From positions 496,001 through 560,000 of the forward strand of contig NZ_JAJJMN010000001.1 of NCBI RefSeq assembly GCF_020905335.1: a stretch of DNA of 64,000 nucleotides. Reading direction: 5' to 3'. Below, in pieces: positions 238 through 61,559 of this stretch. This stretch comes from Flavobacterium lipolyticum (lineage in GTDB: Bacteria; Bacteroidota; Bacteroidia; Flavobacteriales; Flavobacteriaceae). The notes under the pieces were generated by a model. The model saw nothing but the letters and a program-made list of their open reading frames with translations. It was not told where the DNA came from and made no database searches. Each line of letters opens with the position of its first letter. The stretch's first letter is position 1. The translations under genes were made by a program, and so were the position numbers.

Positions 238-409
238 AAACTTTTGGATTTCATTACACACTATAACATCAGAATTATAAACCTAAAAGTGCGTCTTTAA
301 TTTCTGTTCCCCACGATAAAATTCGCCTTACTATTTTTCATAACTTTACATCTATCAATAAATTAATCCTAAAAATCCATTTACTATTTGAAAATTAAAC
401 ATCCGTAAA

Positions 410-53949: not shown

Positions 53950-54717
53950 TTACCCCAGCCAGTTTTTAAAGTCCTGTACTTTCTCGCGGCTCACAATTAC
54001 CTCATCCTCTTTATAAGTAGGTAAAATTACCTTTAGCCGTGAATTGGTATATACCTGAATTTCTTTTATCGCGGTAAGCGGAACAATGAATTTTCGGCTA
54101 ACGCGAAAGAAATCTTTTTTATCGATTTCCTGCTCCAGGATTTCCAAAGTCGAATCAATTAAATAATTTCGATTATCAAAAGTATGAATATAGGTTCCTT
54201 TATTTTCACTAAAGAAACACTCAATTTCGTCTGTGGTAATAACCTTTAAGTGCTGTCCGATTTTAACTGTAAATCGTTTTTTATAATTCTTTTCAAAGGG
54301 GTTTGACAACATTTGACGAATTTGTTCAAAATCAAGTTGCAAATTTGAATTTTCTGAACTTGTTTTTGGTAATCTGGTTCTGAATTTTGCAACAGCAACT
54401 TCCAGATCATCTTCATCAATGGGTTTTAAAAGATAATCGATACTGTTTAATTTAAATGCTTTTAAAGCATATTCATCATAAGCCGTGGTAAAAATAATGG
54501 CGCTCTGAATATTTATTTTTTCGAAAATTTCAAACGATAAACCATCAGACAATTGAATATCCAGAAATATGAGATCCGGATGTTCGTTATTTTCAAACCA
54601 ATAAACGGATTCTTCAACAGAATGTAACATGGTCTTTACAGCAATATCTAACTTTTCGAGTTTTCGTTGTAGTAATCTTGCCGCCGGTTTTTCGTCTTCT
54701 ATAATTAATGTGGTCAT
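53950..54717 (-). CDS. LytTR family response regulator
   Basis: The 255-residue protein has a receiver domain with phosphoacceptor Asp53 in HPDLIFLDIQLSDG and the conserved Lys in YLLKPID (about residue 98). A C-terminal LytTR DNA-binding domain follows (about residues 155-253, FTVKIGQHLKVITTDEIECF and FRVSRKFIVPL). It pairs with the kinase at 56467-57825, the usual LytS/LytR arrangement. It is the last gene of the minus-strand cluster and follows five 2TM genes. Confidence 0.93.
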   Translation of the reverse strand: MTTLIIEDEKPAARLLQRKLEKLDIAVKTMLHSVEESVYWFENNEHPDLIFLDIQLSDGLSFEIFEKINIQSAIIFTTAYDEYALKAFKLNSIDYLLKPIDEDDLEVAVAKFRTRLPKTSSENSNLQLDFEQIRQMLSNPFEKNYKKRFTVKIGQHLKVITTDEIECFFSENKGTYIHTFDNRNYLIDSTLEILEQEIDKKDFFRVSRKFIVPLTAIKEIQVYTNSRLKVILPTYKEDEVIVSREKVQDFKNWLG

Positions 54718-54753
54718 TTTGTAAGATGCAAAAATTAAAAATTCAGTTTAAAA

Positions 54754-55122
54754 TTACTTCCATTTATTTTTATTTTCAGCCTCTTTCTTCATTATTTTTT
54801 GAATTTTCTTTTGCTCCCAATCCCTATTGAAAAAAACATCAGGGCCAAAAACGGAAATTCCATGAATCACTAAAGCAATCCCCCAAAAAAATGCAGTCGA
54901 GTAAATTTCCCAATCACGGAATCCTCTAATGACAAAATGATCTCCTATATAACTTTGATTCAGACTTGAAACAATGATGATAATGTTCACCAATATATAA
55001 ACTCTTAAATGCGAATAAAAGCCTTTAATTCTTTTTACTTTTTTATATGCCAAATTGAAACTTTCGTCTGTACTAAACTCATGTGAATACTCTTCGTACA
55101 TCTGTCTTCTAAACTGTCCCAT
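54754..55122 (-). CDS. 2TM domain protein
   Basis: The 122-residue protein belongs to the 2TM family: YKKVKRIKGFYSHLRVYILVN (start of first helix), a second helix around STAFFWGIALVIHGISVF, and the C-terminal DWEQKKIQKIMKKE. Two membrane helices (about residues 38-58 and 74-94) are followed by a charged tail. The function of this small family is unknown. It is the last of the 2TM array and is nearest the regulator. Confidence 0.9.
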   Translation of the reverse strand: MGQFRRQMYEEYSHEFSTDESFNLAYKKVKRIKGFYSHLRVYILVNIIIIVSSLNQSYIGDHFVIRGFRDWEIYSTAFFWGIALVIHGISVFGPDVFFNRDWEQKKIQKIMKKEAENKNKWK

Positions 55123-55140
55123 ATTATTTTGATTTAAAAA

Positions 55141-55512
55141 TTATTGCCATTTTTTATTATTGTTCTGTGCCTCTCTCTCCATATACTTTTGGATCTTTTT
55201 TTGTTCCCATTCACTGCTGAAAAAAATATCAGGGCCAAATACGGTAAAAGCATGAATGCCTAAAGCTACTCCCCAGCATATCGCTGTCGAATAGGTACGC
55301 CAGTCTAACAATCCGTTTTCATAAACACTATGGCTGAAATAATCTCTGTTTAAATTAGAAACTATAATAATGGCATTCACAATCAAATACACTTTTAAGT
55401 GCGTGTAAAAACCTTTGATTTTTTTCACTTTTCTGTAGGCTAAATTATAGTTTTCGTCTGTACTAATTTCATCCCTGAAAGCTTCATACCTGTCTCTTCT
55501 ATATCGTCTCAT
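55141..55512 (-). CDS. 2TM domain protein
   Basis: The 123-residue protein is clearly the nearest paralog of the next downstream 2TM protein, sharing an Arg-rich front and STDE-x-NLAY-K-VK-IKGFY. The first helix is around YLIVNAIIIVSNLN and the second around STAICWGVALGIHAFTVFGPD. The tail EWEQKKIQKYMERE repeats the family ending. The 18-bp gap suggests co-transcription. Confidence 0.9.
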   Translation of the reverse strand: MRRYRRDRYEAFRDEISTDENYNLAYRKVKKIKGFYTHLKVYLIVNAIIIVSNLNRDYFSHSVYENGLLDWRTYSTAICWGVALGIHAFTVFGPDIFFSSEWEQKKIQKYMEREAQNNNKKWQ

Positions 55513-55522
55513 TTTACTATAA

Positions 55523-55840
55523 TCATTGCCATTTATTTTTATTCTCTCTCTCTTTTTCCATCAGTTCTTTGATCTTTTTCTCTTCCCAGTCTTTTCCGAG
55601 AACCGGAAACACTTTAAAGACTTTCAAACCGTGAAAAACCACTCCAACTCCCCACCACATTAAGGGCCAGTAAAACCATAAATGTCTTGGTGATGTATAA
55701 AGATTGATAAAAATCAGAACCAGATTTACAATAACGTATGCCGTTAGATTGCCATAGAAACCTTTGATTTCCTCCACTCTCTTTTTTGCGAGGTAATATT
55801 TATCCTCTTCATTCAAATCTACTTCCATGATTACTCCCAT
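55523..55840 (-). CDS. 2TM domain protein
   Basis: The 105-residue protein has VEEIKGFYGNLTAYVIVNLVL, then PRHLWFYWPLMWWGVGVVFHGL and the tail DWEEKKIKELMEKE. It is the shortest member. Its start overlaps the previous gene's end by 10 bp and it may start at a later Met (MEVDLNEEDKYY) four residues in. Confidence 0.9.
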   Translation of the reverse strand: MGVIMEVDLNEEDKYYLAKKRVEEIKGFYGNLTAYVIVNLVLIFINLYTSPRHLWFYWPLMWWGVGVVFHGLKVFKVFPVLGKDWEEKKIKELMEKERENKNKWQ

Positions 55841-56160
55841 TTTTGTTTTTTTTCCTTTTTCTCTAAAATGCTTTTCATTTTACGCTCTTCCCATTCTTCT
55901 CCAAAAATTTTAAAAGAAGCGAATATCTCTATTGCCGATACTACAAAAACAGTAGTCCAAATACACATGACAAATCCGTTCAGATATTGTACAGGAAAAA
56001 TATTAAGCGGAAGCCCAAAATAATCTTTTAAAATATAAAGTATAAGACCTGCACTATAGAAAATCACATGAGTGTAAAAAGCCTTTAACTTCACCACCTT
56101 TTTACTTGCCATCTTTTGAAGTTCAAAATCTTCCTGTTCTTTATTAAAATTAGTTTCCAT
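55831..56160 (-). CDS. 2TM domain protein, diverged
   Basis: The 109-residue form from the ATG at 56160 (METNFNKEQEDF) is preferred. An ATG at 56253 would overlap the upstream gene by about 100 bp. The two helices (THVIFYSAGLILYIL and GFVMCIWTTVFVVSAIEIF) lack the WGxGVxIHG motif of the others, but the tail EWEERKMKSILEKK is conserved. Confidence 0.82.
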   Translation of the reverse strand: METNFNKEQEDFELQKMASKKVVKLKAFYTHVIFYSAGLILYILKDYFGLPLNIFPVQYLNGFVMCIWTTVFVVSAIEIFASFKIFGEEWEERKMKSILEKKEKKQKWE

Positions 56161-56464
56161 AATTATTTTTAGATTTGCTGGTTCTTTCTTTTTCCAAAAT
56201 TTCTTTGATTTTCTTCTCCTCCCAGTCTTTACTGAAAAATGGCGGGATATCAAACACTGTCAGTCCATGAATGACTACTCCTACTCCCCAACCCAAAACG
56301 CACCAGACAAACCATAAATATTCGGGCGAGGTTATAAGATTTACGGCTATCACAATAATGTTTACCAGTATAAAAACCGCCAGGTGCTCGTAAAACTCTC
56401 TAATTTCTTTTACTTTTTTCTTGGCCTGATAAAAACGTTCTGCTTCAATAAAATCCTTTTCCAT
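56150..56464 (-). CDS. 2TM domain protein
   Basis: I use the ATG at 56464 (MEKDFIEAERFYQAKK), giving 104 residues. The upstream start at 56530 would lie in the preceding kinase frame. It has VKEIREFYEHLAVFILVN, YLWFVWCVLGWGVGVVIHGLTVF and the tail DWEEKKIKEILEKE. It starts 3 bp after the stop of the kinase gene and its own stop overlaps the next start. Confidence 0.88.
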   Translation of the reverse strand: MEKDFIEAERFYQAKKKVKEIREFYEHLAVFILVNIIVIAVNLITSPEYLWFVWCVLGWGVGVVIHGLTVFDIPPFFSKDWEEKKIKEILEKERTSKSKNNYGN

Positions 56465-56466
56465 GG

Positions 56467-57825
56467 CTACTTCCAGTTTTTTTGTTTGTTTTCCCGTTCC
56501 AGAATCTCTCTTATTTTTCGTTCTTCCCAATCTGAGCTGTACCCAAATACTTTAAAAGCATGCATGACAACCCCAAACCCCCAGCCTAAAGCCGAGAACC
56601 AAAACCACTGAAATCCAGGAGAATACCTCAAATTTATAAAAATTAAAAATGGTATCACACAACAATATGAAATTACGTTACCGTAAAAACCTTTTAGTTC
56701 TTCTACTCTTTTCTTAGCTCTGAAATAAGCTTTATTTTCGTCGCTATATTCTGCACTTGTTTCCATGACTGTAATTTGTTTGGTTAAAATTGGAATTTTA
56801 ACGGTGAAATTTTCTTCGTTTTGTTCAATCAGAACTTTTCTGTTAGTTACAATTGAATATCGGTTCACAATGTTCTGCAATCCTACTCCCTGCCTGTCCT
56901 GCAAAACTTCTTTCTTCTGAAAATCATTTTGTATCGCCAGATAATCTCCCTCTACAAAAATCCTGATATGCAAAGGTTTTTGCTCGCTAACGATATTGTG
57001 TTTTACTGTATTCTCTAATAAAAGCTGCAAGGATAGCGGAACTACTTTTGCATCGGGATTGATATTGCTCGTTGGTAATTCATAAAACAAACTGTTCTCG
57101 AATCGCATTTTAAGCAAATTCATATAGGTTTTAGCAAACGACAGTTCATCTTCAACAGAAACCAGCTCCTTGTCTTTTTGCTCTAAAACGTAGCGATAGA
57201 TTTTAGATAAAGAGGTCGTAAATCGTTGTGCATTATCCGGATTTTCTTCGATTAAAGAACTAAGAACGTTTAAACTGTTAAAAAGAAAATGCGGGTCTAT
57301 TTGATTTTTTAAACTTTCGAATTTTGCATTGGCCGTTCCTGCAATAATCTTTTGCTGTGTTACTTCAAATTTGGATGCCTGTTTCCACTTCACCATAAAG
57401 CTTCGGGCCTGCATGAAAGTTGATACTCCGAGAGACAGAATCACATAAAAAAGGTGTGCCCAAATCATTCTTTCACTAAAAAACTGATCCGGCGGAAGGT
57501 CCTGAACAAATACACAAACAACATAATTGATTCCCAAAACAACCGGAACGGTATACAATATGGTAATCAAAATTCCGTAGTACACCCTTAGATTGGTTTG
57601 TTCCAGCCAATCCCATTTTTTATCTAAAAGAACGTTAATAAATCCGTTACCAAAGCCCAATCCAAAAGAGTAAAGGCAGCTTATCCCGAAGGTTAGTAAT
57701 ACATTTTCAATATTTAAATCGGTACCAAGAAAGGCACAGAATAAAATGGTAAAGACCATAGAAATCTTGAAACACATAATTGTTCCACTTTTTAAATCAG
57801 CAAATGAGTTTCTATGATCTTTCAT
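56467..57825 (-). CDS. LytS-like histidine kinase with C-terminal 2TM domain
   Basis: The 452-residue protein has four or five N-terminal membrane helices (about residues 15-145). A His_kinase domain follows with the phospho-His in KNQIDPHFLFNSLNVLSS (H179), and an N-box LLLENTVKHN (268-277) with G-box GVGLQNIV. Residues 354-452 then form a complete 2TM domain with YGNVISYCCVIPFLIFINL, LGWGFGVVMHAFKVFG and the tail DWEERKIREILERE. An ATG at 56766 (Met354) could also start the 2TM part alone. The partner is the LytTR regulator at 53950. Confidence 0.93.
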   Translation of the reverse strand: MKDHRNSFADLKSGTIMCFKISMVFTILFCAFLGTDLNIENVLLTFGISCLYSFGLGFGNGFINVLLDKKWDWLEQTNLRVYYGILITILYTVPVVLGINYVVCVFVQDLPPDQFFSERMIWAHLFYVILSLGVSTFMQARSFMVKWKQASKFEVTQQKIIAGTANAKFESLKNQIDPHFLFNSLNVLSSLIEENPDNAQRFTTSLSKIYRYVLEQKDKELVSVEDELSFAKTYMNLLKMRFENSLFYELPTSNINPDAKVVPLSLQLLLENTVKHNIVSEQKPLHIRIFVEGDYLAIQNDFQKKEVLQDRQGVGLQNIVNRYSIVTNRKVLIEQNEENFTVKIPILTKQITVMETSAEYSDENKAYFRAKKRVEELKGFYGNVISYCCVIPFLIFINLRYSPGFQWFWFSALGWGFGVVMHAFKVFGYSSDWEERKIREILERENKQKNWK

Positions 57826-57846: not shown

Positions 57847-58470
57847 TTATTTTTTACAATTCTTTTGTGTTTCCAAAGCTCTTTCTAGTCCCCATTTTGG
57901 AGAAAAAGGTGTCGCTGGTTTAAAAGTAGCAAAAAGTTCGACAGCTTTATCCACTTGTGCACATAACGGTTTGGTATCAACCCCTGACCATTTTGCTCCT
58001 CCAATCTGATAATCCGCTTCACCAAAAACAATTCTCGGATTATTCGGGTCTATCGCTTTTCCTTTTGCATAAGCTTCCATCACCTTAGCCGAATATTTCA
58101 TTCCGTTTGTCATTGGATCAGCTACTACCCAGGCTGTATAGATTAAAGCCTGCATCGCATAAAGCTCGGCATTATTTTGATCTTTAATAAATTCTGTATC
58201 CAGTGCATCTTGCGCTTTCGTCAGCAACAAATCGATTTTCGTTTTATCTTTTTCAGAAAATGCTGCTGTAGTATTGATTAAGGCTACATAGTAATTTGGC
58301 AAATAACTGTTTTTTTCTGCTGCAGCAATTCTCTCAAACATAGCCGAAGCTTCCGTATTTTTTCCTTCTTTCCAAAGCCCGAAAGCTTTTCCCATTCCTT
58401 GTTCAAATTGTGTTTGTGCCGAAGTTAGCAATACGGTAAATAATGCGATTGTGGTAATAATTCTTTTCAT
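57847..58470 (-). CDS. Secreted protein of unknown function in the kinase operon
   Basis: The 207-residue product has a signal peptide (cleavage near residue 19, LLTSAQ). Helical repeats reminiscent of tetratricopeptides follow (GKAFGLWKEGKNTEASAMFERI). The conserved phrases MQALIYTAWVVADPMTNGMKYS and FGEADYQIGGAKW mark a Bacteroidota family lacking a clear function. It starts 21 bp before the kinase gene in transcription order, suggesting co-expression. Confidence 0.75.
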   Translation of the reverse strand: MKRIITTIALFTVLLTSAQTQFEQGMGKAFGLWKEGKNTEASAMFERIAAAEKNSYLPNYYVALINTTAAFSEKDKTKIDLLLTKAQDALDTEFIKDQNNAELYAMQALIYTAWVVADPMTNGMKYSAKVMEAYAKGKAIDPNNPRIVFGEADYQIGGAKWSGVDTKPLCAQVDKAVELFATFKPATPFSPKWGLERALETQKNCKK

Positions 58471-58513: not shown

Positions 58514-58921
58514 TTAAAATACGATGTTAACTTTTGAATCGTTGTTTACGCTAAATTTAGCATCGTTATAGATTGGAGGTCCCATAAATCCTTTGGCATT
58601 ATTCGAACAGGCATAATCTTCAGAAGGAATTCCCATCATATTGCGGTCCAGTTTTCCGTTGCTGTTTTCGTCATGATAAGTCGAGATTCCGTATTCTCCT
58701 TTGGGAACCCCAACAAAAGTTACCGTAGCTTCATTATTTTTAATTTCGGAAACTATGCTTTTGTAAGTCGTTTTAAGAAATGTTGTATCGGAATTGTACA
58801 AACCTACTCTAACAGTTCCTTTATTGTTTTTCAAACCTGAAACAGCAACTGTAAGGTTTACATTCTGCGCAGATAACAAACTGCAGATAAACAGCATAAG
58901 TAAAGTGATAATTTTGACCAT
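58514..58921 (-). CDS. DUF2141 domain protein, secreted
   Basis: The 135-residue protein has a signal peptide (to about residue 18, SLLSAQ) and the DUF2141 core: VAVSGLKNNKGTVRVGLYNS and ISTYHDENSNGKLDRNMMGIPSEDY. The DENSNGKLD segment resembles a calcium-binding loop. Its function is unknown. It sits 43 bp before the next gene in the kinase operon and after the TonB receptor. Confidence 0.9.
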   Translation of the reverse strand: MVKIITLLMLFICSLLSAQNVNLTVAVSGLKNNKGTVRVGLYNSDTTFLKTTYKSIVSEIKNNEATVTFVGVPKGEYGISTYHDENSNGKLDRNMMGIPSEDYACSNNAKGFMGPPIYNDAKFSVNNDSKVNIVF

Positions 58922-59262
58922 GATTTCTTTTTTTAAGGTTCTAAATGACTAAAACTCTGATTTTTTCTGATGATGATTAAAACTCTTTTTTTTTTAGGTT
59001 CAAAGATTCAGGGTGACAAAAGGCTCAAAGGTTTTGATTTTGTAATTCTTAACCTCTCTCTCTATTCCTTTTAATTTATACTTCAAAAGTATATCGGATT
59101 TTATTCTTTTAAAATTAAATGATACCGAGTTGTTGATTTTGATGACTGAATTGTTTTTTTTTGAGGTACTAAGGTTCTGAGAGACTAAGGTACTAAGGTT
59201 TCTTCTAAATAGCTCAGTGTCATAAGTATCTTAGTACCTTAGTCTCTCAGAACCTCAGCAAC
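58922..59262. repeat. Gene-free spacer with CTTAG-class inverted repeat
   Basis: A perfect 26-bp inverted repeat (59172-59197 with 59230-59255, core GAGAGACTAAGGTACTAAG) encloses 32 bp. It lies just downstream of the TonB receptor stop. It could terminate the receptor transcript and separate it from DUF2141. The rest is AT-rich and shows no gene. Confidence 0.85.
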
Positions 59263-61450: not shown

Positions 61451-61559
61451 TTTTAACATTTCCTGTTAAAAAATATTAAATAACCCAATTGTAGAATTTT
61501 AAGGATGAGTTGTAAATATCTAATTTGTATCTTAGCTATGAATTCTAAAATCTTCACTT

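What the first reader, a model, noticed from the sequence alone, without database searches (positions are those of the whole stretch)
53950..57825. A six-copy 2TM array joined to a LytS/LytR two-component pair
Seen: five separate 2TM genes and a sixth 2TM domain on the C-terminus of the kinase, with LytTR regulator last, all co-oriented and tightly spaced or overlapping. Every copy keeps a WE(E/Q)(K/R)K tail. Inference: the small proteins may associate with the kinase's own 2TM domain and set its signalling, acting as a membrane module. The family has no assigned function.
Basis: partly seen in the sequence, partly recalled or inferred. Interest (0 to 1): 0.76.

Follow-up and report, generated by a model that had tools for sequence, protein, structure and literature searches.

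The report
Sensor kinase with matching membrane partners
In Flavobacterium and its relatives a sensor kinase carries the same small membrane domain as a row of tiny proteins encoded beside it, all apparently switched on by the kinase's own regulator, which suggests a membrane signalling complex of unknown purpose whose parts can now be tested one by one.

Summary
One minus-strand operon holds a His_kinase-2TM fusion, five separate 2TM genes and a REC-LytTR regulator. It is not peculiar to this genome: 229 of 232 kinase loci read have a 2TM domain fused to the kinase, and 78 complete Flavobacterium-type loci hold one to seven separate 2TM domains in old, ordered paralog classes. The unit is larger than reported: a TPR-like gene, DUF2141 and a TonB receptor lie upstream. 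A direct repeat of LytTR type, at fixed distance from a promoter box, precedes both operon and receptor gene; the only other exact match in the genome is inside a coding sequence, so the circuit looks local and self-activating. New: an in-frame ATG at the kinase/2TM junction is conserved, and codons around it form the top synonymous-conservation window of the kinase gene in three disjoint sets that have it (P 0.009, 0.115, 0.002), not in 24 kinases lacking it. The gene probably also yields a free 2TM protein. Binding of the small proteins to the kinase is likely but not shown; direction of control and signal are unknown.

The parts
56467..57825 (-). Histidine kinase, 452 aa: four predicted N-terminal helices, His_kinase (PF06580), HATPase-like region (by eye, no Pfam hit), C-terminal 2TM domain (aa 369-442)
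   Evidence: Pfam; helices from the low-confidence model; fused in 229 of 232 loci
56467..56766 (-). Predicted nested ORF: free 99-aa 2TM protein from the in-frame ATG at codon 354 (56766-56764)
   Evidence: Met354 in 80 of 81 Flavobacterium-type rows, 59 of 71 and 62 of 80 other-genus rows
56761..56790 (-). Codons 346-355, strongest synonymous-conservation window of the kinase gene in the Flavobacterium-type set, around the internal ATG
   Evidence: neighbouring window 348-357 on top
56150..56464 (-). Separate 2TM protein T1, class A, 104 aa
   Evidence: PF13239, 102.9 bits; class by tree
55831..56160 (-). Separate 2TM protein T2, class B, 109 aa, most divergent
   Evidence: PF13239, 40.9 bits
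55523..55828 (-). Separate 2TM protein T3, class C, 101 aa
   Evidence: PF13239, 110.2 bits; class C in 75 of 79 loci; model
55141..55512 (-). Separate 2TM protein T4, class D, 123 aa
   Evidence: PF13239, 82.8 bits
54754..55122 (-). Separate 2TM protein T5, class D, 122 aa
   Evidence: PF13239, 85 bits; class D in 78 of 79 loci
53950..54717 (-). Response regulator, REC-LytTR, 255 aa
   Evidence: Pfam
57847..58470 (-). Weakly TPR-like protein, 207 aa, with a signal-peptide-like start (by eye); first gene upstream of the kinase (gap 21 nt)
   Evidence: no relevant Pfam hit; homologue upstream in 80 of 80 Flavobacterium-type loci and 31 of 41 others
58514..58921 (-). DUF2141 protein, 135 aa
   Evidence: PF09912, 118.1 bits; 43 of 80 Flavobacterium-type loci; one protein with a TPR-like part in L203
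59263..61422 (-). TonB-dependent receptor, 719 aa
   Evidence: PF13715, PF07715, PF00593; upstream in 79 of 79 Flavobacterium-type loci with enough space
59124..59154 (-). LytTR-type direct repeat before the DUF2141-TPR-kinase-2TM-regulator operon (ACAATTCAGT-N11-ACAACTCGGT)
   Evidence: same repeat, 21-bp period, in 81 of 81; exact match in own genome
59084..59091 (-). Promoter -7 box TACTTTTG, 32 bp after the repeat
   Evidence: 73 of 81 at exactly this offset; the box consensus is recalled
61483..61513 (-). LytTR-type direct repeat before the TonB receptor gene (ACAACTCATC-N11-ACAATTGGGT)
   Evidence: 71 of 79; exact match in own genome
61443..61450 (-). Promoter -7 box TACATTTG, 32 bp after the repeat
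   Evidence: 49 of 71 at exactly this offset; only 50 of the 71 rows are full length

Best explanation
A local, self-activating LytTR two-component circuit whose kinase works inside a membrane assembly built of 2TM subunits. Shown by sequence: the kinase carries its own 2TM domain; one to seven further 2TM domains of distinct, ordered classes lie in the same gene row; LytTR-type repeats with fixed promoter geometry precede that row and the adjacent TonB receptor gene. Supported but not shown: the kinase gene has an internal start (Met354) that yields a free copy of its 2TM domain. Inferred: the regulator binds the repeats and activates; the separate 2TM proteins and the free copy pack beside the kinase's 2TM domain through like-with-like contacts and set its output, most likely restraining it, so that activation of the operon also raises its own brake; the input comes from the envelope through the receptor, DUF2141 and TPR-like proteins.
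For: Fusion of the domain to the kinase in 229 of 232 loci read; 0 of 145 regulators fused; kinase with two 2TM domains and one or no separate copy in L202 and L204; unfused 2TM-kinase-regulator operon in L217 with the same repeat upstream; the two family kinases without the domain lie in genomes without array 2TM genes (G247 no 2TM at all, G277 only one in a 312-aa frame, the size of the DHFR-fused form; G277 is 87% complete); 13 of 13 Flavobacterium genomes without any 2TM lack the orthologous kinase, two of them holding a 32% paralog. Ordered classes. Repeats and box. Internal start.
Against: No contact between a 2TM protein and the kinase was measured or modelled. After control, distances of classes C and D correlate with the regulator (0.56, 0.53) more than with the kinase 2TM domain (0.41, 0.37), and class A with neither (0.09, 0.08). 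The sign of the effect (brake or booster) has no direct evidence. L205 has a fused kinase and regulator but no separate 2TM gene. For the internal start: Met354 borders a protein stretch that is itself conserved (342-351); position -3 is G rather than the favoured A and -12 is C; the site is not unusually unstructured in Flavobacterium; over all 69 family rows the top window is elsewhere (codon 185, with 347 second), and 22 pooled kinases without the Met have a top window at codon 303 with P 0.018, so windows of this strength also arise for other reasons. Eight of 42 loci of other genera and order-mates lack the repeat at the expected place, among them all four order-mates.
Confidence: 0.48

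Rival explanations
1. The separate 2TM proteins are the output, not the regulator: they act in the inner membrane (protection of the envelope or support of transport by the TonB receptor), and the kinase's fused copy senses the state or amount of the same assembly.
For: They lie in the operon preceded by the LytTR-type repeat, as the receptor gene does; 2TM proteins also occur away from kinases, e.g. beside or fused to dihydrofolate reductase, so the domain has uses without a kinase.
Against: Array 2TM genes are missing where the kinase or its domain is missing, which is less expected of a generally useful effector; no enzyme-like residues stand out, the positions conserved in 90% or more of 72 rows are mainly aromatic, WE and Lys.
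Confidence: 0.25
2. The 2TM proteins hold the LytTR regulator at the membrane, as the inhibitors of LytTR Regulatory Systems do, and the kinase only releases it.
For: LytTR Regulatory Systems have a small membrane inhibitor co-transcribed with a LytTR regulator and 9-bp repeats mostly 12 bp apart (passages of PMC6193735); distances of classes C and D correlate best with the regulator.
Against: Fusions are to the kinase, none to the regulator (0 of 145); this regulator has a REC domain and a kinase partner, which those systems lack.
Confidence: 0.15
3. The array is a neutral by-product of tandem duplication with no coordinated role.
For: Copy number varies from one to seven separate domains in 78 Flavobacterium-type loci.
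Against: Copies fall into four classes in conserved order, classes C and D are in 75 and 78 of 79 loci, and 0 of 286 separate copies have a sister clade only from their own locus.
Confidence: 0.03
4. Met354 and the conserved codons around it serve something other than translation, such as an RNA processing site or an internal promoter, or simply follow from the conserved protein stretch before it.
For: Synonymous conservation marks a nucleotide element but not its use; the Kozak-like context is only partly good.
Against: The signal spans the ATG and is missing from 12 and 12 kinases without Met354; no TAnnTTTG box lies in the 150 bp before the ATG in the window.
Confidence: 0.25

Closest known systems
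LytTR Regulatory Systems (HdrRM, BrsRM of Streptococcus mutans; PMC6193735, passages including the abstract seen)
   Same: LytTR regulator and small membrane protein in one operon; direct repeats of 9 bp mostly 12 bp apart before their own promoter; positive self-regulation shown there for HdrRM
   Different: Here there is a kinase and a REC domain, the membrane proteins are 2TM (PF13239) and several, and one copy is fused to the kinase
MgrB on PhoQ and ScrA on SaeS (titles and beginnings of abstracts seen in the search listing: PMC8404706, PMC10576120, PMC12239555)
   Same: A small membrane protein changes the activity of a sensor kinase; MgrB belongs to the regulon of the kinase it inhibits
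   Different: One small protein each in those accounts, and no shared domain is mentioned in the lines seen
LiaF in LiaFSR (LiaF domains from passages of PMC11237479; inhibition of LiaS recalled)
   Same: Membrane protein encoded with a two-component system
   Different: LiaF has DUF2154/DUF2157 domains, not 2TM, and is one protein
Pfam 2TM domain PF13239
   Same: All six copies belong to it
   Different: No function is known to me for the family (recalled); the kinase array is one context, the DHFR neighbour another

Membership tests
Pfam 2TM (PF13239) | Score above the curated cut-off | tested here: met
   Six of six copies, 40.9 to 110.2 bits against 24.8
Pfam 2TM (PF13239) | Two membrane helices with a short link | tested here: met
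   T3 model: helices 5-45, 53-70, 79-100, mean pLDDT 83.7; membrane insertion inferred; the other copies were not modelled singly
LytTR two-component system | PF06580 kinase with phospho-acceptor region | tested here: met
   90.7 bits against 25.2; invariant IDPHFLFNSLN in 35 rows
LytTR two-component system | REC-LytTR regulator | tested here: met
   LytTR 76.2 and Response_reg 52.5 bits
LytTR two-component system | Direct repeats with about 21-bp period before target promoters | tested here: met
   81 of 81 and 71 of 79; binding itself not tested
LytS/LytR proper | LytS 5TM domain; equivalog score for LytR | tested here: not met
   No 5TM-LytS hit; LytR model NF010684 108.4 bits against a cut-off of 375
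LytTR Regulatory System | No kinase; regulator without REC | tested here: not met
   Kinase and REC present
LytTR Regulatory System | Membrane protein inhibits the regulator | not testable with these tools
   Needs an experiment
LiaFSR / PSP-type system | LiaF (DUF2154) or PspC domain | tested here: not met
   Neither is among the Pfam hits

The most novel reading that the evidence does not exclude
The kinase gene is two genes in one: full-length kinase-2TM and, from a conserved internal start, a free copy of its own membrane domain. That copy and the ordered 2TM paralogs form a heteromeric membrane shell around the kinase whose composition, set by a self-activating operon, fixes the gain of the circuit.
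Probability: 0.3. Interest if true: 0.78.

Novelty: new variant of a known kind. Interest (0 to 1): 0.62.

Why it matters
PF13239 has, to my knowledge, no assigned function, and this locus gives it a testable one in a genus with a genetically tractable laboratory strain. If right, it shows a sensor kinase that shares its membrane domain with a set of co-encoded paralogs and makes a detached copy of that domain, a way to tune a two-component system not described in the papers found. It also gives a defined pair of target promoters for read-out.

Tried and rejected
Recent tandem amplification was considered and rejected: 0 of 286 separate copies have a sister clade only from their own locus, and the classes are ordered. 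Kinase-2TM fission was suspected where one search lists a stop inside the match. Of the ten such genomes that I read, L135, L195-L201 are fused kinases of 441-461 aa, in L183 the fused kinase frame is short (312 aa, its N-terminal part missing from the frame), and L206 has no 2TM domain; none is a split of kinase and 2TM. A wider regulon was sought with the repeat pattern: 61 matches with up to two mismatches against 49 for the reversed control, so no clear excess; of three exact matches two are here and one lies inside a coding sequence. Met354 as a buried residue was considered: the model puts residues 349-364 below pLDDT 50 (low-confidence model, pTM 0.37), and replacements are mixed (A, I, K, P, E, Q, V, S; V, K, I, T, A, H, Q, R, F), though V and I together make up 9 of the 18 in the last set, which leaves a hydrophobic preference possible. 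RNA openness at the internal ATG was not unusual in 41 Flavobacterium-type rows (every second row of 81; 35% of windows less structured) and somewhat more so in 57 other genera (15%). Distance correlation did not discriminate between kinase and regulator as partner. A fold search of the T3 model found no significant match (best E 3.0); by sequence the only solved hit for 2TM was at chance level (E 0.82), and the kinase matched 6swj over residues 175-300 only. A family-wide tree did not resolve the kinase copies as one clade (83 copies best fit a clade of 130, support 0.32), so one clade of fused copies is shown only for the Flavobacterium-type loci (79 of 79). The kinase/LytTR pair FJOH_RS09520/09515 mutated in a co-evolution study (PMC10197871, passages) was set aside because its two tags are adjacent and leave no room for an array; this was not checked in the genome.
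Full report
WHAT IS THERE. The window lies in a Flavobacterium-type genome (G000, 5.77 Mb; the nearest named kinase is 98% identical, in F. tructae). On the minus strand a kinase, five small 2TM genes and a REC-LytTR regulator follow each other with gaps of -11 to 36 nt. Six of six 2TM copies pass the Pfam cut-off. The genome has a seventh 2TM gene elsewhere, next to dihydrofolate reductase.

HOW WIDESPREAD. Eighty loci, nearly all titled Flavobacterium, were fetched by similarity to the kinase (the best 80 of 581). All 80 have the kinase-2TM fusion; 78 reach the regulator, and these hold 1 (4 loci), 2 (9), 3 (26), 4 (21), 5 (13), 6 (3) or 7 (2) separate 2TM domains. In the family sample 153 of 199 genomes have the kinase at E up to 1e-30; I read the kinase of 149 of them and not of G127, G142, G181 and G183. 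Over 152 loci examined together (80 Flavobacterium-type, 67 of other genera of the family, 4 order-mates, 1 outgroup) 149 kinases are fused, two of them to two 2TM domains, and 3 are not (L206, L208, outgroup L217); a further 80 genera gave 80 of 80 fused. Together that is 229 of 232. Retrieval used the full kinase as query, which favours fused ones, though unfused ones were still found. In 42 complete loci of other genera and order-mates the separate count is 0 (4), 1 (8), 2 (16), 3 (10) or 4 (4).

TIE TO THE KINASE. Fusions are to the kinase; 0 of 145 regulators carry the domain. In L217, whose genome shares only the class with this one, a separate 2TM gene, a kinase without the domain and the regulator form one row. 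The two family kinases without the domain belong to genomes without array 2TM genes: G247 has no 2TM at all and G277 (87% complete) only one, in a 312-aa frame, the length of the DHFR-fused form. Of 121 Flavobacterium genomes 13 have no 2TM match; in 11 of these 13 the kinase search finds nothing at E 1e-20 and in 2 only a 32% paralog. Of 13 further genomes with one 2TM gene only, G050 has a 46% partial match, G017, G028 and G074 have weaker ones, and nine have none.

ORDERED CLASSES. A tree of 365 domains from 79 loci (window included) puts the 79 kinase copies in one exclusive clade (support 0.86) and nearly all separate copies in four classes: A (T1) in 50 of 79 loci, B (T2) 53, C (T3) 75, D (T4, T5) 78. 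By my reading of the listing 72 of 79 loci follow the order kinase-A-B-C-D with classes missing or repeated, 5 break it and 2 hold an unassigned copy. None of the 286 separate copies has a sister clade only from its own locus. Across the family the tree is poorly resolved.

LARGER UNIT AND CONTROL. Upstream on the same strand lie a TPR-like gene (homologue in 80 of 80 Flavobacterium-type loci and 31 of 41 others with enough space), DUF2141 (43 of 80; 9 of 38) and a TonB receptor (79 of 79; 8 of 23). Before the first gene of the operon a direct repeat with 21-bp period is found in 81 of 81 loci, window included, and before the receptor gene in 71 of 79. Of 2000 random 350-bp pieces of the window, which include the real sites, 71 reach score 13, the lowest score of the 81 operon sites; the operon regions searched were up to 450 bp long. 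A TAnnTTTG box follows at exactly 32 bp in 73 of 81 and 49 of 71 (in the latter only 50 rows are full length). A matrix trained on these sites scores above 15 in 34 of 42 loci of other genera and order-mates and 24.9 before the outgroup row; 8 of 42 fail, including all four order-mates. In the own genome three exact pattern matches exist: the two here and one inside a coding sequence. The geometry is that of LytTR Regulatory Systems, 9 bp plus mostly 12 bp (PMC6193735, passages). Binding by this regulator is inferred.

INTERNAL START. Kinase residue 354 begins the fused domain (ITV-MET-S). It is Met in 80 of 81 Flavobacterium-type rows while residues 356-359 and 361 vary; the stretch before it (342-351) and Tyr360 are conserved too. 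In 71 rows that are mainly other genera it is Met in 59, with column entropy 1.13 bits against 1.99 to 2.83 for residues 350-353 and 355-357 (rows L117, L155, L206, L208 and L217 were dropped, and L118 and the window as well). In 80 further genera, fetched afterwards as a hold-out, it is Met in 62 (entropy 1.39 against 1.88 to 2.9 for the same neighbours), and 68 have a Met within residues 350-357. Synonymous conservation was scored by amino-acid-specific rank in 10-codon windows. In the 81 Flavobacterium-type rows the top window of 425 is codons 346-355 (z 3.55; P 0.009 for any window, by shuffling sites). In 57 other-genus kinases with Met354 the top window of 346 starts at codon 348 (z 2.95, P 0.115); over all 69 rows of that set the top is at codon 185 (z 2.68) and 347 comes second. 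In the 62 hold-out kinases with Met354 the top is again codon 348 (z 3.65, P 0.002); the two windows I had fixed beforehand, 344 and 346, rank 14th and 11th of 352 with P 0.034 and 0.019. In 12 and 12 kinases without the Met the region shows no such signal: z 0.41 and 0.83 at codon 344, and -0.3 at 346 in the second set (346 could not be scored in the first). Pooled, 119 kinases with Met354 top at 348 (P 0.02); 22 without any Met nearby top at codon 303 (P 0.018) and give z 1.15 at 344, so such windows can also arise for other reasons. Six hold-out rows with a shifted Met were not scored in either group. K349 is AAA in 78 of 78 rows with Lys and Q350 is CAA in 78 of 80. The shuffles ignore relatedness, so the P values are rough; the repeat in disjoint sets is the stronger argument. 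The context has A at -6 and -13 but G at -3 and C at -12, while A at -3, -6, -12 and -13 favours initiation in F. johnsoniae (PMC6847099, passages). Initiation is therefore likely but may be weak or coupled.

STRUCTURE. The T3 model (pLDDT 83.7) has a 41-residue helix, a second helix of 18 and a C-terminal helix of 22 residues that bears the WE motif; which parts lie in the membrane and their sidedness are inferred. The kinase model is poor (pTM 0.37) but shows four N-terminal helices, a catalytic part, a linker at 349-364 with pLDDT below 50 and the 2TM helices.

LITERATURE. Searches for '2TM domain' with LytTR, with histidine kinase or Bacteroidetes, as '2TM domain-containing protein' and with Flavobacter, for LytTR with Flavobacterium and histidine kinase, and for DUF2141 with TonB-dependent receptor showed no paper on this arrangement in the listings and passages seen; the held library is open-access only.

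VERDICT. The local self-activating circuit rests on good sequence evidence. The nested 2TM product is the most novel and the most easily tested claim.

Noticed in passing
G000:C1:2392172-2392417 (L234:4932-5276): The seventh 2TM gene of the genome lies directly before a dihydrofolate reductase gene and near thymidylate synthase; in L222 and L223 2TM and DHFR are one protein of 305-312 aa, and L229 has a 2TM protein of like size.
   Followed up: partly
P0133, P0143, P0150, P0200: Separate 2TM proteins of 105 aa are named 'histidine kinase' in public records, perhaps by transfer from the fused kinase.
   Followed up: no
L230-L232 (e.g. L231:4654-5223): In three order-mates a gene of 185-189 aa sits inside the 2TM array; the one tested (L231) is an ICMT/PEMT-type methyltransferase.
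   Followed up: partly
L206:3512-4000 and L192:5995-6465: A DUF2306 membrane protein gene lies between kinase or 2TM genes and the regulator; in L206 it is there in place of any 2TM gene.
   Followed up: partly
L213:1470-2612: An amidohydrolase gene sits between the last 2TM gene and the regulator; L197 has an uncharacterised gene of like size at the same place.
   Followed up: no
L203:2757-3785: A weakly TPR-like part and DUF2141 are one protein upstream of the kinase, which suggests that they work together.
   Followed up: partly
PMC10197871 Table 2: In F. johnsoniae an adjacent kinase/LytTR pair was mutated, in one gene or the other, in all five lines co-evolved with Burkholderia thailandensis; probably a different pair.
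   Followed up: no
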